From Ignavibacteriota bacterium (GTDB lineage Bacteria; Bacteroidota; Ignavibacteria; Tepidaquicellales; Tepidaquicellaceae), in contig JACREY010000022.1 in assembly GCA_016218085.1 (NCBI GenBank), positions 62,001 to 126,000 of the forward strand: 64,000 nucleotides of DNA, written 5' to 3'. Shown piece by piece: positions 364 through 62,160 of this stretch. Within the stretch, counting starts at the first letter, position 1. Each line of letters opens with the position of its first letter. Position numbers and translations under genes: made by a program. Under the pieces are notes generated by a model. It was not told the origin of the DNA and did not search any database. It saw only the letters and a program-made list of their open reading frames with translations.

Positions 364-1881
364 ATGATGAAAACAACCGTTAAAAAAACTAAATCACCTG
401 AATCAGATTTTGAAAAAAGATACAGGGATATTTATAATACAGTAAGCGAGGCTATTTATATTCTGAATGAAGAAGGCGTTTTCATAGATGTGAACAGAGG
501 CGCTGAAATTATGTACGGATATTCACGCGAAGAGCTTATCGGAATGTCCCCTGCCGATGTGTCTGCCCCGGGGAAAAATGACCTGGAACAAACTGCAAAA
601 TTCCTGGCAGAAGCTTTTAATGGAAAACCGAGTATTTTTGAATTCTGGGGGCGTCGGAAAAATAATGAAATTTTTCCAAAAGAAGTTATTCTTAATCCGG
701 GAAATTATCTCGGGAAAAAAGCCATCATCGCAACTGCAAGGGATATTTCCGAAAGGAAAAAATATGAAATTGAATTATCGAAAATCCAGTCACGCCTTGC
801 TCTGATATTCAATAACTTTCCCAATATGGTGCTTTATGAATCAAACGGACCGAATGATTTTATTTCCGAAAATGTAGTCGATATGCTGGGATACCCCCCG
901 TACCTGTTTACTCAGAATGTTAAATTTATAAATTCGCTCGTGCATCCGGAATACAGAAAAGACCTTGAACCAAAAATCTTGAAATGGATGGAAGACTGCA
1001 AATCAGGAAATCTCAAAATTGAATATCCTTGCAGAAGGGCGGACGGAGAGTATATATGGATTGAAGATTTCCTTCAGAAAGAAATTTCAGAAGACGGTAA
1101 ACCATACATAATCGGAATGATGACGGATATATCCGAAAGAAAAAACCAGATGGAAAAACTGAAGGAATATGCAGAAGAATTAAAAAACCTTAACTCAAGT
1201 AAAGACAAATTTTTCTCTATAATTGCCCATGACCTTCGCAGCCCTTTCAACGGACTGCTTGGCTTCTCAACCGTTCTGCTCGAAGAGCTTTCCGAGCTTA
1301 CTTCGGAAGAAATCAAAGAGTATGCAGGTTATATTCATACATCCGCAAAAACGGTTTATAACCTCGTTGATAACCTGCTCCAGTGGTCGAGAATCCAGAC
1401 AGGACGAATTGAATACCAGCCGATAAAAATTGACCTGTATGAAGAGGTTTTCAAAGCCATTGAACTCTTCAGCAGCAATGCTATTACCAAGAGAATAAAA
1501 CTGATAAATGATATTCAACCGGATGTTTTTGTTCACGCCGACCAGAATATGCTTAGAAGCATTATGCAAAACCTGATTTCTAACGGAATTAAATTTACGG
1601 GACACGGCGGCACAATTAAAATTTCTTCAAAAGAAAAAAACGAAAGAATTGAAATTGAAATAGCCGACAGCGGTGTCGGAATTGAAACAAAGGATATCGC
1701 TAAACTTTTCAGAATTGATTCTCAGTATTCAAGCCTTGGCACTGCAAATGAAGAAGGCACCGGTCTGGGTCTTATTCTTACAAAAGAACTCGTCGAAAAA
1801 AACAGAGGGCAAATCTGGGTGAAAAGCACTATGAAAAAAGGTACATCCTTCTTCTTCACCCTCCCGAAATGGAATAAATAA
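364..1881 (+). CDS. PAS-domain sensor histidine kinase
   Basis: Two-component sensor kinase of 505 residues with no signal peptide or membrane segment, so probably cytoplasmic. Order: PAS about 18-130 ending in a PAC-like ARDISERKK, a second PAS/PAC about 140-258 ending in MTDISERKN, HisKA about 275-345 with phospho-acceptor His289 in IIAHDLRSPFNG, then HATPase_c about 385-500. The ATPase shows the N box (NLISNGIKFT), G1 (DSGVGIETKD) and G2 (GTGLGLILTKEL). Two ATGs are adjacent (364 and 367) and either could be the start. It follows the receiver gene by 5 bases and precedes selD by 1 base, so the three are probably co-transcribed. The input signal cannot be read from the sequence. Confidence 0.93.
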   Translation: MMKTTVKKTKSPESDFEKRYRDIYNTVSEAIYILNEEGVFIDVNRGAEIMYGYSREELIGMSPADVSAPGKNDLEQTAKFLAEAFNGKPSIFEFWGRRKNNEIFPKEVILNPGNYLGKKAIIATARDISERKKYEIELSKIQSRLALIFNNFPNMVLYESNGPNDFISENVVDMLGYPPYLFTQNVKFINSLVHPEYRKDLEPKILKWMEDCKSGNLKIEYPCRRADGEYIWIEDFLQKEISEDGKPYIIGMMTDISERKNQMEKLKEYAEELKNLNSSKDKFFSIIAHDLRSPFNGLLGFSTVLLEELSELTSEEIKEYAGYIHTSAKTVYNLVDNLLQWSRIQTGRIEYQPIKIDLYEEVFKAIELFSSNAITKRIKLINDIQPDVFVHADQNMLRSIMQNLISNGIKFTGHGGTIKISSKEKNERIEIEIADSGVGIETKDIAKLFRIDSQYSSLGTANEEGTGLGLILTKELVEKNRGQIWVKSTMKKGTSFFFTLPKWNK

Positions 1882-1882
1882 C

Positions 1883-2941
1883 ATGGAAAATGTAAGACTT
1901 ACCCAAATGGTAAAATCGGCAGGATGCGCTGCCAAACTGTTCCCTTTTATACTTTCCGATGCACTGAAAGATATTGACTGGGGAAAAAATGAAAATGTCC
2001 TGATCGGCTTCGATGGTAAAGATGATGCAGGAGTATATAAGATTTCTGATGAACTTGCATTAATCCATACAACGGATTTTTTTACACCTGTAGTGGATGA
2101 TCCGTTTACTTTCGGTCAGATTGCCGCAGCTAATTCTCTCAGCGATGTCTATGCAATGGGAGGAATTCCGATTAACGCTCTTAACATAACTGCATTCCCT
2201 CAAACCGAGAATATAAAAATTCTTAAAGAAATTCTTGCAGGCGGAAATGAAAAAGCAAAGGAAGCAGACTGCGTTATTATCGGGGGACATTCGGTGGATA
2301 TTCCATCAATACTTTATGGACTCGCAGTAACCGGAAAAATCCATCCGGAAAATATCAAAGGAAATGATTCCGCTAAACCCGGCGATGTGCTGATTTTAAC
2401 TAAAGCACTCGGCACAGGTCTTCTGAATAATGCAATAAAATATAATTCCCCTGATGACAAGATTTGCAGAAAACTGATTGCTTCTATGAGCAGGCTTAAT
2501 AAAAATGCCGCTGAACTTATGGTGAAATATAATGCAAACGGATGCACGGATGTTACGGGTTTCGGACTCGCAGGGCATTCTATGCAGATGGCTCAGGCAT
2601 CATCAGCTGTCCTTCACTTTATTATAAATGATTTACCTGTTCTCCCCGGTGCAATGTGGGCTGTCGAAGAAAAACTCCTTACACGCGGAGATAAATCAAA
2701 TCGCACTTATACGGAAAAATCTGTAATGAATCTTGGCAGTATTAATCAGGATAAAGAACATATCCTTTATGACCCGCAAACATCCGGCGGACTGCTCATA
2801 TCCGTTCCCGAAAAAAATGCGGATAAACTTCTCTCGGATTTGCAAAATTCAGGCGACGAGGATTCTAAAATTGTCGGATTCGTTAAATCCCCTTCTGTTG
2901 AATTTAAATCCGGCACAATTATTTTCGATTTTAATGATTAA
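1883..2941 (+). CDS. selD: Selenide, water dikinase (selenophosphate synthetase)
   Basis: Makes selenophosphate from selenide and ATP, the selenium donor for selenocysteine and for 2-selenouridine in tRNA. At 352 residues it is full length. The N-terminus carries LTQMVKSAGCAAK, in which Cys15 (codon TGC) takes the position that is Cys or Sec in the family, so this is the Cys form. Further PurM/AIRS-fold signatures are the Asp-rich HTTDFFTPVVDDPF segment, the Gly/Asn-rich ANSLSDVYAMGG segment, GHSVD, and the C-terminal DPQTSGGLL. It begins 1 base after the kinase gene and ends 3 bases before selU. That pairing points to tRNA selenation as at least one use of the product. Confidence 0.97.
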   Translation: MENVRLTQMVKSAGCAAKLFPFILSDALKDIDWGKNENVLIGFDGKDDAGVYKISDELALIHTTDFFTPVVDDPFTFGQIAAANSLSDVYAMGGIPINALNITAFPQTENIKILKEILAGGNEKAKEADCVIIGGHSVDIPSILYGLAVTGKIHPENIKGNDSAKPGDVLILTKALGTGLLNNAIKYNSPDDKICRKLIASMSRLNKNAAELMVKYNANGCTDVTGFGLAGHSMQMAQASSAVLHFIINDLPVLPGAMWAVEEKLLTRGDKSNRTYTEKSVMNLGSINQDKEHILYDPQTSGGLLISVPEKNADKLLSDLQNSGDEDSKIVGFVKSPSVEFKSGTIIFDFND

Positions 2942-2944
2942 ATT

Positions 2945-4132
2945 ATGGATGATTCCGTTATAAAAGAAACAAAAGCCCTCTTCGAATACATCCGTTCGTT
3001 CGACCTGAACAGCATTCCTGATTTGAATACAATGCTGTCTGATTATAATTTTTCTTATATCCCGATTGAAGATCTGCTCTGTAAAATCTCTTTTGGAAAA
3101 AACATCCTGATTCTCGATGCCCGCTCTGAAAATGAATACCTGGAAACACATCTTCCGGAAGCGGTTAACTTTCCCGTTTTGAATGATAAAGAAAGGCATA
3201 ATACAGGACTGATATATTCAAAGTATTCTCCGCTTGCCGCCGTGAAACTCGCAGCCGAATATGCCGACCCTAAAATGCCTGGACTGAAAAAAAAACTGGC
3301 AGAACTTAAAGCCGGACTTAAGGAAATTTTTGTCTACTGCTGGCGCGGAGGCGGCAGAAGCAAATACCTCGCTAAAATGATTTTTGACTGCGGATTTAAA
3401 CCCGTAATACTGACGGGCGGAATTAAATCCTATCGTAAAAAAGTAATGGAGTTTTTCGCTAAAGATTTCGATTATAACCTGATTGAGCTAAACGGTCTGA
3501 CCGGAACAGGAAAAACAGAAATTCTGCGTGAAGTTTCTTCAAAAATCCCTGTACTTGACCTTGAAAAATCCGCTCGGCACTTTTCTTCCCTGTTCGGATT
3601 TATACCTTATAAAATCCGCGGTTACGAGACCGTTAAAAACCAGTCTGCTTTCGAAAATGATATCTTCGCTCAGATTGTCCTGCAAATGCCAATGTTGAAA
3701 GAGTATAATTTTTTTCTCGTCGAAAGCGAAAGTAAAAAAGTCGGAGACTTCTTTATCCCCCAAAATATATACTTAAAAATGCTTGAAGCTAAAAGCATTA
3801 ACATATATAGAAATATAGAAGTTAGAATTGAACATATAATAAATGACTACTTTGGTACAGAAAATCAGGGACTCGTTGAAATGGAAAAAATTTTCACCGA
3901 AAAAGAAAGATTATTCAGAAAGGAATTAAGCAATAAATCATATGAAACCCTCCTGAATTTTCTCCAAAATGGAGATAAATACCGCTTTACAAAAGGTATG
4001 ATTGAGGAATATTATGATAAGAAATACAGGGATAAAGGTAAAACTCCCCTGACTTCAATCTGCTCCGATGATGTCCGCAAAGCCGGCAAGGAATTGATAT
4101 CCTTCCTCAGCTATATCAATAAACAGGATTAA
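2945..4132 (+). CDS. selU: tRNA 2-selenouridine synthase
   Basis: Also called mnmH or ybbB. The family replaces sulfur with selenium in 2-thiouridine at the wobble position of certain tRNAs, through an S-geranyl intermediate, using selenophosphate. The 395-residue protein has the expected order. First comes a rhodanese domain, about 35-160, with the catalytic-Cys loop YCWRGGGRSKY. Then comes a P-loop domain beginning near residue 185 with Walker A GLTGTGKTEIL, and an all-helical C-terminus. It lies 3 bases after selD, a classic pairing. Its last 17 bases overlap the 3' end of the convergent peptidase gene. No selA or selB is visible in the window. Confidence 0.95.
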   Translation: MDDSVIKETKALFEYIRSFDLNSIPDLNTMLSDYNFSYIPIEDLLCKISFGKNILILDARSENEYLETHLPEAVNFPVLNDKERHNTGLIYSKYSPLAAVKLAAEYADPKMPGLKKKLAELKAGLKEIFVYCWRGGGRSKYLAKMIFDCGFKPVILTGGIKSYRKKVMEFFAKDFDYNLIELNGLTGTGKTEILREVSSKIPVLDLEKSARHFSSLFGFIPYKIRGYETVKNQSAFENDIFAQIVLQMPMLKEYNFFLVESESKKVGDFFIPQNIYLKMLEAKSINIYRNIEVRIEHIINDYFGTENQGLVEMEKIFTEKERLFRKELSNKSYETLLNFLQNGDKYRFTKGMIEEYYDKKYRDKGKTPLTSICSDDVRKAGKELISFLSYINKQD

Positions 4133-11935: not shown

Positions 11936-11953
11936 ATTTCAATTTACCATTAT

Positions 11954-11986
11954 AAAAAAGAGGGAGCTTTATGCCCCCTCTTTTTA
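11954..11986 (+). terminator. Rho-independent terminator
   Basis: AAAAAGAGGGAGC, the loop TTTAT, then GCCCCCTCTTTTT: a GC-rich stem followed by a U tract, 20 bases after the P-loop gene. Its A/T flanks make it bidirectional, so it could also end the convergent cytochrome transcript at 12013. Confidence 0.85.
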
Positions 11987-12012: not shown

Positions 12013-13413
12013 TTATTTTATTAACATCATTTTCACGGTTTGTCTGAAATCGGCTGCTTCCATCCGGCAGAAATAGACTCCGCTGGAAAGCTCACTGCCG
12101 TTAAATTCAACTTCATATTCACCCGGTTTCATATTTTCATTTACAATTAATTCCTTAACCAATACTCCAAGTGAATTATATACTCTCAGGAAAACATTTG
12201 TATTTTTCTGAATACTGAACCTGATTTTTGTATATGGATTGAACGGGTTCGGATAATTCTGTTGTAAATTAAATTTTTCCGGTGTATTACTGTTGATTGG
12301 CTGTATGCCGATTGTCGAACCGAGTTTTGTCATTTGTGAAGCTGTAAGAGGCAGTACATATCTTGATAGCATTTGATTACCATTCAATCCCCTCTTTGCA
12401 AATACCCACATCGCCGGATTTGTGTATGTTGTATCCAGACGACCTGTGTAATTTGCGAAATCAAAAACTAAAGATGTGAGATAATCAGGCGGAATCGGAA
12501 TAACTCCCTGTGTATGAACAATTTTTTTAGGAACCGAAACAGAATCCCATTTTGCAACGACAATCTGGTGAGTGCTGTTATACTCACTTATTACTGCGTT
12601 GTTATGGCACTCTCCGCATGTCCTCGTGGAATCCTTTGGCATTATCGTGTGAGGATAATAAGGACCCCAGGCATTGAACGTTTTATTCCCCTGATAAATT
12701 ATTGATTGATAGTTTACAATGCCGACTTTGCCGGTCTGTACATGTCTTGCTAGCATTATAAATCCTTTGAGCTGGCCGATAGGACGTTTAAAGCCTCTCA
12801 TACCCTGCCATACTTCAGTATCGAAATGGCAGTTATAGCAATTCACTATCGACCTGGTATGACAGGTTGCGCATTCAAGCTTGCTCATGTGTGTTGAGTG
12901 AGCAAGCGAATCGTCTGGTGTGACGGGAATTGTACTGTGACATCCTGCTGTTTGGCAGTTTTTACCCTGTACTGTGTCAAAAGGTGAGAAGTAAGGTGTT
13001 GCATCTGCATGCAATTCATCTTTTACGTGACAAGTAACACAGGTAAATCCCGCCGATCTGTGCTTATCGGTATAGTTGGCAATTTCGACTTTCTGCCTGC
13101 TATGGCATCTTTTACATATAGAATCAGGTACTGAATTTCCTAATGTAAAATTATGGCAGTCGTTACATGACGGTTGATAAGTAGCCGTATCAATCGGTGT
13201 ATTGTTTGCCAGCTTACCGGGATGACATTTAGTACAACGTAAAGCATTAATCGGAATATTTGAGATATTTTCAAATCCTCCATTTGTAGAAGCATAAAAA
13301 TTCGAATGCCCTTTTCTTAGCATATGAAAACTGGTTGCCTGTGGATATGCAATGTAGCTGTAAAACAATCCAAAAACCAAAGCTAAGATAATTGGCAAAT
13401 AAAGCCTTTTCAT
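12013..13413 (-). CDS. Secreted octaheme c-type cytochrome with T9SS sorting domain
   Basis: A 466-residue exported protein. It has an N-terminal signal peptide (MKRLYLPIILALVFGLFYS) and eight heme-attachment motifs: CTKCH, CNDCH, CKRCH, CVTCH, CQTAGCH (a CX4CH variant), CATCH, CYNCH and CGECH, plus extra His residues for distal ligation. After about residue 375 comes a Por/T9SS type A sorting domain, starting NYPNPFNPYTKIRFSI and ending VKMMLIK. The family is involved in electron transfer; the tail predicts transport across the outer membrane, so surface electron exchange is a reasonable inference. I cannot assign it to a characterised enzyme family. A strong ribosome-binding site (GGAGGTT) precedes the ATG. 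The gene is monocistronic. Confidence 0.9.
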   Translation of the reverse strand: MKRLYLPIILALVFGLFYSYIAYPQATSFHMLRKGHSNFYASTNGGFENISNIPINALRCTKCHPGKLANNTPIDTATYQPSCNDCHNFTLGNSVPDSICKRCHSRQKVEIANYTDKHRSAGFTCVTCHVKDELHADATPYFSPFDTVQGKNCQTAGCHSTIPVTPDDSLAHSTHMSKLECATCHTRSIVNCYNCHFDTEVWQGMRGFKRPIGQLKGFIMLARHVQTGKVGIVNYQSIIYQGNKTFNAWGPYYPHTIMPKDSTRTCGECHNNAVISEYNSTHQIVVAKWDSVSVPKKIVHTQGVIPIPPDYLTSLVFDFANYTGRLDTTYTNPAMWVFAKRGLNGNQMLSRYVLPLTASQMTKLGSTIGIQPINSNTPEKFNLQQNYPNPFNPYTKIRFSIQKNTNVFLRVYNSLGVLVKELIVNENMKPGEYEVEFNGSELSSGVYFCRMEAADFRQTVKMMLIK

Positions 13414-13614
13414 ATAACCTCCGTTTAAAAATTAGAAAATATTAAAGATATTAAAATTATTACAAATTTTATACCAAACTTCCTGTTTTTAAACTAATTT
13501 ATGCAGTTCTGCTGAAATAAGATGTGTATTTTATGTACTTTGAGGTTTAATCTGCGTGTATATTCTCCACATAAATTTTTCTAATATAATAAAAAATTTA
13601 TTAAAGAAACAAAC

Positions 13615-13643
13615 AAAAAAAAGGGAGCATTCGCTCCCTTTTT
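13615..13643 (-). terminator. Rho-independent terminator
   Basis: AAAAAAAAGGGAGC, the loop ATTC, then GCTCCCTTTTT. It lies 27 bases past the stop codon of the T9SS repeat protein read on the minus strand. A heptamer array (13641-13675) fills the space between the stop codon and this hairpin. Confidence 0.88.
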
Positions 13644-13675
13644 ACTTTACACTTTATACCTTCTACTTTCTACTT
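13641..13675. repeat. Degenerate heptamer array, consensus TNTACTT
   Basis: Five consecutive seven-base units: TTTACTT, TACACTT, TATACCT, TCTACTT, TCTACTT. The fourth/fifth units include the TAG stop codon (13670-13672, minus strand) of the T9SS repeat protein, and the first unit touches the terminator. Confidence 0.8.
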
Positions 13676-15703
13676 AATTAGTACCATCTTCTTCACTTCC
13701 GTAAAATCACCTGCAGTCAATTTATAAAAATACACTCCGCTCGGATATTCGGAAGCATTCCAGTTAACCTCATATTCACCCGGATTCATTTTCTCATTCA
13801 CAAGCATTTCAATTTCTTTTCCAAGATTATCATATACTTTCAGAATAACAAATCTTGAATCTTTAATCTTAAATCTTACTATCGTAACAGGATTAAAAGG
13901 ATTCGGATAGTTTTGGTTTAAAGTATATAATGAAGGTATTTCGTTTGAAATCGTTTTTATTCCAATAATTTCAGATAATGAGCGTCTTAAAACTGAATGG
14001 AATGCTGTTCCGGCATAAATGATATTATTTGCTATTAGTATTTTTTCTGTCCTCGGTGCGATATTAATTCCTTGATTCTTTTGAATCCAATTGATACCGC
14101 TATTAGTAGAAAGATATAAACCATCACTTGTCCCTGCAAAAAGATTATTTCCGTCTGCAACAAGTGAATAAATACTCATATTATTAAAAAATAGTTGTGT
14201 CCAATTTACACCATTATTTGTTGTTATGTATAAACCATTATTATAAGTACCTGCAAATATTATATTATCTTTTAAAGCAAGGGAATATATACTTACATTA
14301 TTCAATGATGTTTGAATCCAGTTAGTTCCGTTATTTGTGGATAAATAAACACCGTAATCAAATGTCCCTGCAAAAATATTATTCCCGCTAATAAGAAGTG
14401 AAGAAACATTCTGATATAAAGTACATCCTGTCCAATTATTACCGTTATTTGTAGTATAATAGAGACCGTTTTCTGTTCCTGCAAATACTTTATTACCGCT
14501 TACTGCAAAAGAATATACACTTCTGTTATTCAATGCCGTTTGATTAAAAGAAGTTCCGTTATTTGTTGAAAGAAATACACCATTATTATATGTCCCGGCA
14601 AAAATATTATTACCACTGATAAAAAGATCATTTACATCTATATTATTTAAAACATTGATTCTTGAAAACGTAATGCCATTGTTCGTGGAAATATGTACAC
14701 CGTTAATCGAACTGGCAAATATATTATTACCGTTTGCTACTATTGAACGAATGTATTGATTATTCATAGCTGTTTGAGTCCAATTAGTACCGTTATTTGT
14801 AGAAAGATAAACTCCGTAATTGGCAGAACTTGCAAATATTTTGTTATCTGCAATTGCAATTTTGTGTATGTATTGATTGCTTGAGGCTATTTGATTCCAG
14901 CTAGCCCCGTTATTTGTCGAAAGATATACACCATAAAATTCCGTTACCGCAAAAATATTATTTCCATTTAGTGCTATGTACTTGACAACTTTATTATTCA
15001 AAGAAGTTTGACTCCAGCTCGTACCGTTATTCGAAGAATAAAATACCCCATTTTCTGTACCGGCATAAATATTATTCCCGTTTATGGAAACCGCTCTGAT
15101 AATTTGATTGTTCAATGAAGTTTGAGTCCAGGTTGAACCATTATTCGTCGATAGATATAAACCATAATTAGAATTACCAATTCCTGCAAATATATAATTC
15201 CCATTTATAGCAATAGAAGGAACTGGTTTATTAACTAAAGTCGTTTGACTCCAGTTTACACCGTTATTAGTTGAAAGAAAAACTCCATTATTTGTTCCGA
15301 CAAAAAGATTATTATTACTTAATGCAATTGTATTAATTGTTTCAGTACTTAATACAGGTTGATTAAATGTAATGCCATTATTTGTAGAAATACAAATCCC
15401 GTTCGATATTAACCCGGATAATCCTGCGTAAATATTATTTCCACTTACAAGAAGAGAACTTACAGGCTTATTATTCAATGAAGTTTGAGTCCAGTTATTA
15501 CCATTATTTGTAGAAATAAAAACACCCAGACTATATGTTCCTGCATAAATACTATTTTCATTTAATGCAACAGAATATACTGCTCCTCCGTAAATACCAT
15601 CACATTGTACCCACTGCGACATAGAATCTCTAACAAAAAAAGAGGAATTTATAAAAGTAAAAATCAGGATTAAAAATAATACCTTGTTAAATAACTTTTT
15701 CAT
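13670..15703 (-). CDS. Secreted beta-propeller-like repeat protein with T9SS sorting domain
   Basis: A 677-residue exported protein. After a signal peptide (KVLFLILIFTFINSSFF) it is made of roughly fourteen repeats of about 40-42 residues. Each has the pattern ...NNIYAGT-x-GVYLSTNNGxxWTQTSLNN, resembling the Asp-box/BNR or sortilin/YCF48-type blades in which STNNGxxW forms the turn. The C-terminal 85 residues are a Por/T9SS sorting domain (LNQNYPNPFNPVTIVRFKI ... GVYFYKLTAGDF ... MVLIK), so it is probably released or anchored on the cell surface. The ligand is unknown. The strongly repeated DNA may allow copy-number change by recombination. A terminator and heptamer array follow its stop codon. 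Confidence 0.9.
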   Translation of the reverse strand: MKKLFNKVLFLILIFTFINSSFFVRDSMSQWVQCDGIYGGAVYSVALNENSIYAGTYSLGVFISTNNGNNWTQTSLNNKPVSSLLVSGNNIYAGLSGLISNGICISTNNGITFNQPVLSTETINTIALSNNNLFVGTNNGVFLSTNNGVNWSQTTLVNKPVPSIAINGNYIFAGIGNSNYGLYLSTNNGSTWTQTSLNNQIIRAVSINGNNIYAGTENGVFYSSNNGTSWSQTSLNNKVVKYIALNGNNIFAVTEFYGVYLSTNNGASWNQIASSNQYIHKIAIADNKIFASSANYGVYLSTNNGTNWTQTAMNNQYIRSIVANGNNIFASSINGVHISTNNGITFSRINVLNNIDVNDLFISGNNIFAGTYNNGVFLSTNNGTSFNQTALNNRSVYSFAVSGNKVFAGTENGLYYTTNNGNNWTGCTLYQNVSSLLISGNNIFAGTFDYGVYLSTNNGTNWIQTSLNNVSIYSLALKDNIIFAGTYNNGLYITTNNGVNWTQLFFNNMSIYSLVADGNNLFAGTSDGLYLSTNSGINWIQKNQGINIAPRTEKILIANNIIYAGTAFHSVLRRSLSEIIGIKTISNEIPSLYTLNQNYPNPFNPVTIVRFKIKDSRFVILKVYDNLGKEIEMLVNEKMNPGEYEVNWNASEYPSGVYFYKLTAGDFTEVKKMVLIK

Positions 15704-41087: not shown

Positions 41088-41945
41088 ATGTCTAATGAGA
41101 GAGTCCTTTCTGATAAAGATTTATGGATTTTAATAGCCCAAAGCTCGGTTGGGATAACCCACAGACCGCTAAATCTTACGGGAGCAAATTTGACGGGTGC
41201 AAACCTTCAGAGTGCAAATCTGACAAATTCTGATTTGCAGAATGCAAATCTGGAAGGTGCTGATTTGAAATTTACCAATCTTACAAACGTAAATCTATCG
41301 GGTGCAAACCTCTCGAATGCAAATTTATCCGAAGCAAAATTAACAGGAGCTAACCTTACTAATGTTAATTTATCCGGAACAATACTTACGGGAACAAATC
41401 TTCAGGGTGCCGACCTTGCGGCACATAATATGCAGGGCGCTGACCTTACCAATGCCAATCTCGCCGGTGCAAAGCTTAATGAAGCCGATTTGACAGGAGC
41501 AAAGCTAACTGAGGCAAAATTATGGCAGGCAAAATTCTCCGAAGCTACACTTAAAAACGCGCAGTTAAGAGGTGCTAACCTTCAAGGAGCTGATTTATCA
41601 GGACACGACCTGAAAGATGTCGACCTGACTGAAGCTAAACTTTCAGGTGCAAACCTGACAGGTACGGATCTTTCAAATACCAACTTGTCAGAAGCCATAT
41701 TGTGGAAAGCAAACCTGACTGACGCAAACCTGACAGATGCCAATCTCTCAGCTGCAAACCTGCAAAGCGCTGACCTTTCAGGAGCAATCCTTCTTAGGGC
41801 TAACCTTCAGGATGCAAATCTTTTTGCTGCAAACTTATCCGGTGCTAACCTATGGTATGCGGAATTATCAGGCGCAAACCTAACTGATGCAAAACTCGAT
41901 TCGGCTATCGGATATAAACCAAAAACAAAAAAGAAAGAAGAATAA
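41088..41945 (+). CDS. Pentapeptide-repeat protein
   Basis: A 285-residue protein made almost wholly of A(D/N)LXX pentapeptides from residue about 28 (LTGANLTGANLQSANL...) to about 275, so roughly 50 repeats in register. This predicts a right-handed quadrilateral beta-helix. There is no signal peptide or membrane segment; a short N-terminal head (VLSDKDLWILIAQSS) and a Lys/Glu tail (KPKTKKKEE) flank it. Two slips in register occur (AAHNMQGADL, SGHDLKDVDL). Qnr/MfpA proteins of this fold mimic DNA and protect gyrase, but most members have no known role and nothing here assigns one. An AAGGAG ribosome-binding site precedes the ATG. A tRNA-Arg gene follows 50 bases downstream. Confidence 0.92.
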   Translation: MSNERVLSDKDLWILIAQSSVGITHRPLNLTGANLTGANLQSANLTNSDLQNANLEGADLKFTNLTNVNLSGANLSNANLSEAKLTGANLTNVNLSGTILTGTNLQGADLAAHNMQGADLTNANLAGAKLNEADLTGAKLTEAKLWQAKFSEATLKNAQLRGANLQGADLSGHDLKDVDLTEAKLSGANLTGTDLSNTNLSEAILWKANLTDANLTDANLSAANLQSADLSGAILLRANLQDANLFAANLSGANLWYAELSGANLTDAKLDSAIGYKPKTKKKEE

Positions 41946-60004: not shown

Positions 60005-60025
60005 GTTATTGTTATTTGCTATTTG
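60005..60025. repeat. Short heptamer array (GTTATTG, TTATTTG, CTATTTG)
   Basis: Three seven-base units with the same consensus as the array at 15824-15886. The TAG stop (60019-60021, minus strand) of the T9SS gene is the CTA of the CTATTTG unit, exactly as at the EF-G-like gene. A perfect palindrome AATAACTAGTTATT (59997-60010) overlaps the beginning. Confidence 0.75.
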
Positions 60026-62160
60026 ATTAAAATCATTTTCCGTGTTTGCGAATAATCCCCCGCCTCCAGCCTGTAAAAATATATGCCGCTCGGCAGCATT
60101 GTTCCGTTAAAACTCACCTCATATGTCCCGGGCTTCTGATTTTCATTTACCAAAACGGCCACCTCTTTCCCAAGTAAATCATATACTTTCAAAGTCACAA
60201 ATTTGTTATTTGTAATCTGGTATCTGATATTTGTGGAAGGATTAAAGGGATTGGGGTAGTTCTGTTTTAGTATATAAGAATCAGCAATTGTATTATTTTT
60301 ATTCTCAACTCCTGTCAGTCCTCCGCAATTTGTTGTTCTTAGAAGTAATCCATTATATCCCATAATCCAGCCGTTGTTTGCATCCTTAAAATAAATATAT
60401 CTTAATTCCTGGCTTGTCATTTTTGGATACCTGAGCCAGTTATTTCCGCAATTCGTTGTATAAAATATCGTTCCCTTGGCACCCACTACCCATCCCGTGT
60501 TGTAACTTGAAAATCTGACACATTTCAAATATGTATTCACCTGTAAATCAGAAATCCAGTTGACTCCGCCATTTGTAGTTTTTAAAATTTGTCCTGAATT
60601 TCCGTAATCAATACTGCCCACTGCCCAGCCTCTTAAAGAATCCACAAAAAATAAAGAATAATTTGATTGTACAGAAGGAGTTGATTGTCTGAACCATGTA
60701 AAACCGAAATCCGTGCTTTTATAAATCCTGCCGCTGTCACCTCCAACATAGCCATGATGTTTATGAGGAAATTGAATATCATATAAATAAATACCTGGAA
60801 CTTCAAGAACACTAGTCCAGCTTCCGTTTAATTCTTTTCTTTTTAAATAACCGTACGAATACATTCCGGTCAGAAAAGCGACAGAATCTTTACTTGTAAT
60901 GACAGTATACCCAACACCGAATCCGAATGTTTCTGTCCAGTTTAACCCGCCGTTTAAAGTATAGTGAAAAGGAGAGGAATAACCATTACCGCCAACTGCA
61001 TATCCTAAACTACCCGTAACAAAATGAATCGAATTAAGCGTTTGACTTTCTATCACAGAAGGTAATACCCAGTTTATTCCTCCGTCAGTTGATGTTATAA
61101 TTCTCCTGTCAGAAATCATAAAATATTTGTTTCCCTCACTTCCGCACATCCAGTTCAATCCCTCATTTACTCCACCCAGTTTTTCAACCCAGCTTAATCC
61201 CCCATCAATGGTTTTTATTACTTTATTATACATTGCAGAAGTACTTAATGTGGCAAATCCAATCTGAGAATTACAAAATCCTATGTCATTCATTAACATA
61301 TATCCAGGCAGTGCTATCCAGTTATTTCCTGAATTTGTTGTCTTCATCATTAAATTGCTTCCGCAGAGAAATCCATTAGTAGAATCTGTAAAAATTAATT
61401 TAGCAATAAATGCGTTGCAACTGTCAAAATATATCCAGTTATTTCCCTGATCTGTAGTCTTATATATTTTGTTGCTTACCGTTGAATAACCTGTACTATT
61501 ATTTATAAATACAATATTTTTTGATGGATTGCTGTAAGTTCCATTTAAAACTTTCACCCACGAATTTCCACCGTCTGTTGTTTTCAAAATTTTATTTTTT
61601 GAACTTCCAAATATTCCTCCAAGGAAACCTGTATTGCTGTTTAAAAATTTTACACAATAGTAATCTGCTTGTAATCCGGTATTTATCAGAAGCCAGTTGC
61701 TTCCCCCATTTGTTGTTTTATAAATGTATCCTCCAACTGATGCTGCATATCCATTTTCCCCGTCCGTAAAATCAACTGCCTTTATTTTTCTGGGAAAACT
61801 GTAATATTGCCAATTTAATCCTGAATTTGTTGTCTTTATTACATACCCAAGTGTCGAATAATTATATCCTGATGCAAATCCTGTATTTACATCGATAAAA
61901 TCCATATTATAAAAATTTATCTGGTAATCACTCGTGTCGGTGCTTAAAAACCAATTGTCACCTGAATTGGTAGTTTTGAAAATCGTTCCGTATAATCCGC
62001 AGCAAAATCCGGTATTTAAATTGGGAAATATTATTGAATTAAATCTGTATCCGTAATTCTGAATTTTCCAGTCAAAAGGATTGAATGAAAAGACATTTGA
62101 GGAATAAAAAATAAAAATTATTACCAAAGCCAATAATTTTTTAAAAATATTGGAATTCAT
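60019..62160 (-). CDS. Secreted YCF48/BNR-like propeller protein with T9SS sorting domain
   Basis: A 713-residue protein with a signal peptide (LLALVIIFIFYSSNVFSF). About 14 repeats carry KTTNSGxNW or KTTDGGxSW turns (Asp-box type) with FxNxNTGFxxG strands, as in YCF48/photosystem-II assembly-factor-like propellers. The C-terminus is a Por/T9SS sorting domain (LKQNYPNPFNPSTNIRYQI ... GIYFYRLEAGDYSQ ... MILIK). It is probably secreted or surface-bound; such proteins are common in this lineage and their ligands are unknown. It is monocistronic. Confidence 0.9.
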   Translation of the reverse strand: MNSNIFKKLLALVIIFIFYSSNVFSFNPFDWKIQNYGYRFNSIIFPNLNTGFCCGLYGTIFKTTNSGDNWFLSTDTSDYQINFYNMDFIDVNTGFASGYNYSTLGYVIKTTNSGLNWQYYSFPRKIKAVDFTDGENGYAASVGGYIYKTTNGGSNWLLINTGLQADYYCVKFLNSNTGFLGGIFGSSKNKILKTTDGGNSWVKVLNGTYSNPSKNIVFINNSTGYSTVSNKIYKTTDQGNNWIYFDSCNAFIAKLIFTDSTNGFLCGSNLMMKTTNSGNNWIALPGYMLMNDIGFCNSQIGFATLSTSAMYNKVIKTIDGGLSWVEKLGGVNEGLNWMCGSEGNKYFMISDRRIITSTDGGINWVLPSVIESQTLNSIHFVTGSLGYAVGGNGYSSPFHYTLNGGLNWTETFGFGVGYTVITSKDSVAFLTGMYSYGYLKRKELNGSWTSVLEVPGIYLYDIQFPHKHHGYVGGDSGRIYKSTDFGFTWFRQSTPSVQSNYSLFFVDSLRGWAVGSIDYGNSGQILKTTNGGVNWISDLQVNTYLKCVRFSSYNTGWVVGAKGTIFYTTNCGNNWLRYPKMTSQELRYIYFKDANNGWIMGYNGLLLRTTNCGGLTGVENKNNTIADSYILKQNYPNPFNPSTNIRYQITNNKFVTLKVYDLLGKEVAVLVNENQKPGTYEVSFNGTMLPSGIYFYRLEAGDYSQTRKMILIK

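What the first reader, a model, noticed from the sequence alone, without database searches (positions are those of the whole stretch)
12013..13413. Octaheme cytochrome carrying a T9SS sorting domain
Seven CXXCH and one CX4CH motif precede a full Por/T9SS tail. Hemes are attached in the periplasm, so a folded multiheme protein would have to cross the outer membrane by T9SS. That would give a route to surface cytochromes different from porin-cytochrome conduits and relevant to extracellular electron transfer.
Basis: partly seen in the sequence, partly recalled or inferred. Interest (0 to 1): 0.52.

Follow-up and report, generated by a model that had tools for sequence, protein, structure and literature searches.

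The report
Type IX-exported octaheme surface cytochrome family
This gene encodes an eight-heme electron-carrying protein with a tag for export to the cell surface, and it belongs to a conserved bacterial family, in some relatives fused into 16- and 24-heme versions beside electron-conduit genes, which suggests a little-noticed way to place electron-transfer proteins on the outside of a cell.

Summary
The ORF at 12013-13413 (-) is a 466-aa protein with seven CXXCH and one CX4CH and a C-terminal T9SS type A domain above both curated cut-offs. It is not a one-off fusion. Of 33 family proteins examined, 28 carry the tail (TIGR04183) and 5 do not (4 end after the heme domain, 1 is cut by an assembly gap). 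On the heme-domain tree the tail is a single change. Tandem 16-heme (two genomes) and 24-heme (one genome) versions carry one tail each. The genome encodes SprA, PorV and PorU and a second, nine-heme tailed cytochrome of a family present in 38 of 59 relatives. The contrast drawn with porin-cytochrome conduits fails: own genome has a conduit-like cluster, and in three relatives the tailed cytochrome gene lies in such a cluster. Best reading: T9SS supplies the outer-surface cytochrome, a job done elsewhere by lipoprotein cytochromes and T2SS. Acceptor unknown; relatives match Geobacter ExtM (29 of 33). No localisation or redox data. New variant of a known kind.

The parts
12013..13413 (-). CDS, 466-aa octaheme c-type cytochrome with C-terminal T9SS type A sorting domain
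13339..13413 (-). N-terminal Sec-type signal peptide (about residues 1-25), no lipobox
   Evidence: read by eye from the translation; no signal-peptide program was available
12289..13338 (-). octaheme domain plus heme-free C-terminal segment (residues ~26-375), the part conserved in the family
13222..13236 (-). heme 1 CTKCH
13153..13167 (-). heme 2 CNDCH
13102..13116 (-). heme 3 CKRCH
13027..13041 (-). heme 4 CVTCH
12937..12957 (-). heme 5 CQTAGCH (CX4CH)
12859..12873 (-). heme 6 CATCH
12826..12840 (-). heme 7 CYNCH
12604..12618 (-). heme 8 CGECH
12028..12255 (-). T9SS type A sorting domain (PF18962 residues 387-462)
   Evidence: six strands predicted over residues 394-464 at local pLDDT about 50-72 in an otherwise unusable model
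11953..11982 (-). inverted repeat followed by T run, terminator-like, just downstream of the CDS
   Evidence: read by eye; no terminator scan was run
13613..13640 (-). terminator-like hairpin of the upstream gene (13670-15703), suggesting that the cytochrome gene is transcribed alone
   Evidence: read by eye; no scan was run

Best explanation
A surface multiheme cytochrome. Sec exports the chain (inferred), Ccm attaches eight hemes in the periplasm (genes present), the folded protein is recognised by its type A C-terminal domain and carried through SprA with PorV, and PorU removes the domain and fixes or releases the protein outside (genes present, steps inferred from known T9SS substrates). 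Outside, it accepts electrons from, or gives them to, the end of a porin-cytochrome conduit and exchanges them with an extracellular partner. The partner is unknown: metal oxide, chalcogen or sulfur compound, or another cell. Shown: the two signals, the conserved tail, T9SS and Ccm genes, a conduit-like cluster in the same genome, and in three relatives the same kind of cytochrome in the conduit gene run. Inferred: localisation, electron flow and acceptor.
For: Eight heme motifs plus tail above cut-offs. Tail in 28 of 33 family proteins by TIGR04183, 25 of 33 by PF18962. One change of tail state on the tree, tailed side 32 rows, support 100/99. 16- and 24-heme tandem forms keep one tail at the C-terminus. 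SprA in 8 of 8, PorV in 11 of 11, PorU over cut-off in 8 of 8 genomes searched; PorV and PorU lie side by side in own genome at C21:137605-141808. PF18962: 150 places scored in own genome, all over cut-off, out of 246 candidates. Ccm genes in own genome. Conduit linkage: G573 gene run 23-heme, cytochrome b561, 16-heme, 4-heme, 4-heme, porin-like, 13-heme, 7-heme lipoprotein, PAS-sigma54 regulator, TPR, 16-heme with tail, all on one strand; the shared part has the same order in G636 and, with a decaheme and rhodanese lipoproteins inserted, in G392. A second tailed family (nine hemes): 18 of 19 by PF18962, the exception ending early.
Against: No localisation, heme or redox measurement. The window gene itself is not next to the conduit; its neighbours are an ORF without Pfam match, a T9SS beta-propeller protein and EF-G. 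A same-genus genome (G001) has a tailless homologue, so the heme domain works without this export signal in some lineages. GldM (TIGR03517) matched 0 of 11 genomes, but it also rang in no control, so this is uninformative. The porin-like protein has no Pfam, NCBIfam or PDB match; 'porin' rests on size, signal peptide, lack of hydrophobic helices, aromatic content and position. Only five distal histidines are conserved for eight hemes, which fits an enzyme as well as a wire.
Confidence: 0.66

Rival explanations
1. Surface-exposed reductase rather than an electron relay: the octaheme module has open-coordinated hemes and reduces a chalcogen or sulfur compound (selenite, tellurite, tetrathionate, polysulfide) outside the cell.
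For: 29 of 33 members match NF040943 ExtM of the Geobacter selenite/tellurite operon, best E 2e-28. Only five distal His conserved for eight hemes, with invariant K229 and Y40 and near-invariant W336. Related decaheme lipoproteins sit beside a rhodanese-domain protein in 14 of 15 loci and both lie in the G392 locus of the 24-heme form. DsrE (L010), Sulf_transp and PF11783 octaheme (L064) genes lie near other members. PDB profile matches include MccA and NrfB.
Against: The window protein itself does not match ExtM at E 1e-3. Matches are far below the ExtM cut-off (65.9 vs 800 bits for the 16-heme form). Tandem 16/24-heme arrays and conduit linkage suggest transport. Sulfur genes are not beside the window gene. 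The published selenite phenotype is that of extI, not extM (PMC5877670, passages).
Confidence: 0.22
2. Periplasmic cytochrome: the tail is present but export fails or is minor, and the protein works in the periplasm like its tailless relatives.
For: Tailless full-length homologues in G001, G050, G466 and G583.
Against: The tail is kept across 28 proteins of many families and one other class. Tail codons between own and G008: pN 0.32 against pS 0.62, which is below neutrality though synonymous sites are near saturation. T9SS genes are present.
Confidence: 0.1
3. Assembly or annotation artefact: chance fusion of a tail to a cytochrome gene.
For: None found.
Against: Same architecture at 79% identity in an independent MAG (JAPLFJ010000051) and in 26 further proteins; no stop codons in the frame in own genome.
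Confidence: 0.01

Closest known systems
Shewanella MtrC/OmcA outer-surface decaheme cytochromes
   Same: Surface multiheme cytochromes that work with a porin-cytochrome conduit and must cross the outer membrane; T2SS is implicated in their export (PMC1974784 and PMC6929479, passages).
   Different: Lipoproteins linked to T2SS; here no lipobox and a T9SS type A tail. No significant OmcA/MtrC-family match for the window protein; 1 of 33 members matches TIGR03507 at E 1.5e-5.
Geobacter sulfurreducens ExtM (NF040943) of the extHIJKLMNOPQS selenite/tellurite operon
   Same: Best named relative of the heme module: 29 of 33 members match. That operon also holds a rhodanese lipoprotein (ExtH), a porin-like protein (ExtI) and other cytochromes (PMC5877670, PMC6148476, passages), as does the G392 locus here.
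   Different: ExtM has 12 hemes and was reported in outer and inner membranes and periplasm (PMC5877670). Scores are far below the ExtM cut-off, the window protein gives no match at E 1e-3, and here there is a T9SS tail and 8, 16 or 24 hemes.
Porin-cytochrome (Pcc/Mtr/Ext) conduits of Ignavibacteria
   Same: Conduits are already reported in Ignavibacterium album, Melioribacter and Ignavibacteria MAGs (PMC4245776, PMC7399161, passages); own genome has a similar gene cluster.
   Different: Those reports do not mention secretion-system sorting domains as far as searched: 'secretion' and 'sorting' do not occur in PMC7399161 and no word beginning 'secret' occurs in PMC4245776.
T9SS type A substrates of Bacteroidota (gingipains, RemA, Hbp35)
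   Same: Sec signal plus PF18962/TIGR04183 C-terminal domain, PorV-dependent class (PMC10202324, passages).
   Different: The cargo carries covalently attached hemes; 'cytochrome' does not occur in the text of that review.

Membership tests
T9SS type A substrate | C-terminal domain PF18962/TIGR04183 over the curated cut-off | tested here: met
   38.6 bits vs 27 and 32.3 vs 23
T9SS type A substrate | N-terminal Sec signal peptide | tested here: inconclusive
   Hydrophobic N-terminus seen by eye and modelled as a helix at residues 5-21; no signal-peptide predictor available
T9SS type A substrate | Translocon, shuttle and sortase encoded in the same genome | tested here: met
   SprA 6.5e-44, PorV 2.3e-37, PorU 870 bits vs 420 in G000
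T9SS type A substrate | Motor PorLM/GldLM encoded | tested here: inconclusive
   TIGR03517 0 of 11 genomes and no control rang
T9SS type A substrate | Export dependent on T9SS | not testable with these tools
   needs a mutant
Multiheme c-type cytochrome | Several CXXCH/CX4CH motifs, with c-type maturation genes in the genome | tested here: met
   8 motifs; CcmC-like, CcmE, CcmF; PF14522 35.7 bits vs 24.8
ExtM (NF040943) | Score over the equivalog cut-off of 800 bits | tested here: not met
   Window protein: no match at E 1e-3; 16-heme relative 65.9 bits
Octaheme tetrathionate reductase family (TIGR04315) | Match to the family model | tested here: not met
   No match for the window protein; 2 of 33 members match at best E 7e-6
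OmcA/MtrC family | Match to TIGR03507 and lipobox | tested here: not met
   No match for the window protein; no lipobox seen
Porin-cytochrome conduit component | Encoded next to porin and periplasmic multiheme cytochrome | tested here: not met
   Not for the window gene; met for tailed relatives in G573, G636, G392

The most novel reading that the evidence does not exclude
Ignavibacteria and kin build the outer face of their extracellular electron-transfer chain from T9SS cargo: modular 8/16/24-heme arrays and a nine-heme family are exported fully hemylated and docked on a porin-cytochrome conduit. That would be a further route for surface cytochromes beside lipoprotein export linked to T2SS, and a first class of T9SS cargo with many covalently bound redox cofactors.
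Probability: 0.5. Interest if true: 0.74.

Novelty: new variant of a known kind. Interest (0 to 1): 0.6.

Why it matters
It joins two well-studied machines, the T9SS and extracellular electron transfer, in a widespread group repeatedly found on anodes and in iron-rich settings (PMC7399161, passages) whose surface cytochromes are poorly known. It predicts that T9SS mutants lose surface heme, and it gives genes and a tailed/tailless natural comparison for testing. It also implies that T9SS moves a covalently hemylated protein of up to 24 hemes across the outer membrane.

Tried and rejected
2) Bis-His ligation for all hemes: rejected as unsupported, five conserved extra His for eight hemes. 3) GldM/PorM by TIGR03517: no answer, no control rang. 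4) Filing under ExtM, OTR or OmcA/MtrC: cut-offs or matches not met. 5) Reading it as an alternative to conduits: rejected because of gene linkage. 6) Porin-like protein against PDB: nothing. 7) Literature: six searches joining T9SS, type IX, Por or sorting-domain terms with cytochrome or heme terms; the first five gave 0 papers, the last five papers, of which PMC3534657, PMC11495043 and PMC8368055 were searched by passage and none describes a T9SS-tailed multiheme cytochrome in the passages seen; PMC4814513 and PMC4737851 were seen in the listing only. A broader search (any two of four terms) gave 18,959 papers, of which 40 were listed and four looked into by passage (PMC5492636, PMC7399161, PMC3534657, PMC4245776). 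PMC11495043 reports predicted extracellular multi-heme cytochromes in Bacteroidota, without the words T9SS or type IX. Subscription papers, preprints and supplements were not searchable, so 'unreported' is a statement about these searches only. 8) A notebook entry says nine genomes with full-length matches; the right count is 8 of 395 (10 matches), the other 12 hit genomes having decaheme proteins.

Full report
1. The observation. The ORF at 12013-13413 (-) encodes 466 residues with a hydrophobic N-terminus, seven CXXCH and one CX4CH between residues 60 and 270, and a T9SS type A domain at residues 387-462 (PF18962 38.6 bits, cut-off 27; TIGR04183 32.3 bits, cut-off 23). Shuffled versions of the protein never gave more than 3 heme motifs in 20,000 trials. 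It is the only heme-motif ORF among 48 non-overlapping ORFs of at least 100 aa in the window. By eye it stands alone between two terminator-like hairpins.

2. The genome. The window lies in a 3.31-Mb, 22-contig assembly, 98% complete. The genome has 150 scored PF18962 places, all over cut-off, out of 246 candidates, SprA, PorV and PorU (870 bits vs 420), PorV and PorU being neighbours. A GldM profile found nothing anywhere, controls included, and says nothing. Heme attachment genes of system I (CcmC-like, CcmE, CcmF) lie on contig C8.

3. The family. With the heme part alone as query, 8 of 59 genomes (own included) match at E 1e-5. A profile of six heme domains found full-length octaheme matches in 8 of 395 genomes of the phylum sample, with decaheme relatives in 12 more, and matches at E 1e-40 in 36 of 391 genomes of the class. 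I read the ORFs of 33 proteins: 32 of the 36 class genomes plus G186 of another class. TIGR04183 matches 28 of 33 and PF18962 25 of 33. Five lack a tail: four end after the heme domain (G001 of the same genus, G050, G466, G583) and G005 is cut by an assembly gap. On a tree of 37 heme modules the tail state changes once, support 100/99, although two long branches (the tailless group and G186) meet there, so the root and the order of gain and loss are open. Two genomes (G573, G636) have a 16-heme protein made of two octaheme modules, and one (G392) a 1,163-aa, 24-heme protein of three modules; each has one tail, at the very end.

4. Ligands. Across 14 modules, and nearly so across 33 proteins, only five histidines outside the motifs are conserved (H30, H118, H135, H175, H255), with K229, Y40 and W336. 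So five hemes can be bis-His by conserved residues; three lack an obvious conserved distal His. This keeps an enzymatic role open. Profile searches of the PDB give only partial matches: NrfB and MccA among the best with the six-sequence profile, and with the 33-sequence profile first 6r2q_A, then MccA and NrfB; 6r2q_A is labelled cystathionine beta-synthase in the listing, but I recall entry 6R2Q as the Shewanella MtrCAB complex.

5. A second tailed cytochrome. Own genome has a nine-heme protein with a T9SS tail at C8:152437-154514. Its heme part matches 38 of 59 genomes (own included) at E 1e-20; PF18962 is found in 18 of 19 proteins examined, the exception (G005) ending early. So tailed multiheme cytochromes are a habit of this group.

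6. Relation to conduits. Beside the nine-heme gene on C8 lies a run of 18-heme, 17-heme, 4-heme, a 434-aa porin-like protein, 14-heme and a 4-heme lipoprotein, then Ccm genes. The porin-like protein has no family or PDB match; it is called porin-like from its signal peptide, lack of hydrophobic helices, 16-18% aromatic content and place. It matches 16 of 17 genomes tested, G186 only weakly. In G573 the porin-like gene, 13-heme gene, 7-heme lipoprotein gene, PAS-sigma54 regulator, TPR gene and tailed 16-heme gene follow each other on one strand; G636 has the same order, and G392 has the tailed 24-heme gene further along with a decaheme and two rhodanese lipoproteins between. A homologue of the TPR gene lies near the tailed cytochrome in 12 of 28 tailed cases (most loci held only 1.5 kb of flank). 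For the window gene no such linkage exists. The nine-heme gene shares a contig with the porin-like gene within about 10 kb in own genome, G001 and G050.

7. Sulfur or chalcogen link. 29 of 33 members match ExtM of the Geobacter selenite/tellurite operon, best E 2e-28, while the one score seen in full is far under the cut-off. Decaheme lipoprotein relatives are next to a rhodanese-domain protein in 14 of 15 loci. DsrE, sulfur transport and PF11783 genes lie near two members. The passages read say that extI deletion impairs selenite/tellurite reduction and that ExtH is a rhodanese-family lipoprotein (PMC5877670, PMC6148476). This makes a chalcogen or sulfur acceptor a serious rival to metal or electrode reduction.

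8. Known background. T9SS moves proteins across the outer membrane folded (PMC9251779, passages). Surface cytochromes of Shewanella are lipoproteins for which T2SS export is implicated (PMC1974784, PMC6929479, passages). Conduits in Ignavibacteria are known (PMC4245776, PMC7399161, passages). A sludge MAG study predicts extracellular multi-heme cytochromes in Bacteroidota without naming T9SS (PMC11495043, passages). The Melioribacter genome paper links Por sorting domains with carbohydrate enzymes (PMC3534657, passages). Six literature searches joining T9SS or sorting terms with cytochrome terms found no report of such proteins; the library lacks most subscription papers and preprints.

9. Verdict. 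The protein is most likely a T9SS-delivered outer-surface cytochrome, one of two tailed families in this genome, that works with rather than instead of a porin-cytochrome conduit. It is a new variant of a known kind, supported by conservation and gene order and not by experiment.

Noticed in passing
L031:2438-4515 (-) (G000:C8:152437-154514): Second tailed multiheme cytochrome of the same genome: nine CXXCH plus T9SS tail, found in 38 of 59 genomes, and next to a porin-cytochrome-like cluster and Ccm genes.
   Followed up: yes
L058 (G392:C52, ORF 448-3936) and L082, L086: 24-heme and 16-heme proteins made of tandem octaheme modules with a single T9SS tail.
   Followed up: yes
L046-L057, L007-L009, L065:2571-6845: Decaheme lipoprotein and rhodanese-domain (lipo)protein form a conserved gene pair (14 of 15 loci), often with a PAS-sigma54 regulator; reminiscent of Geobacter extH/extM.
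   Followed up: partly
L031:12336-13637: Porin-like 434-aa protein without Pfam, NCBIfam or PDB match, found in 16 of 17 genomes; beside 13/14-heme and lipoprotein cytochromes in the loci read.
   Followed up: partly
L030:4206-7629 (G000:C7): Iron-sulfur-like, NrfD-like and 12-heme genes in a row, resembling a Hmc/Qrc-type quinone-linked complex (names by eye, no family search).
   Followed up: no
L064:624-3408 (G369:C4): Sulfur transporter (PF04143), a cytochrome b-like gene (by eye) and a PF11783 octaheme membrane cytochrome in a run near a tailed octaheme gene.
   Followed up: no
window 13670-15703 and 60019-62160: Two other T9SS-tailed ORFs in the window; the first is a beta-propeller (BNR) protein directly upstream of the cytochrome gene.
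   Followed up: no
G000:C3:235831-245557: Two long (open frames of 1,623 and 1,637 aa) PorU-like proteins side by side, below the PorU cut-off.
   Followed up: no
window 41088-41945: Protein almost wholly of pentapeptide repeats (PF00805, E 1.6e-88).
   Followed up: no
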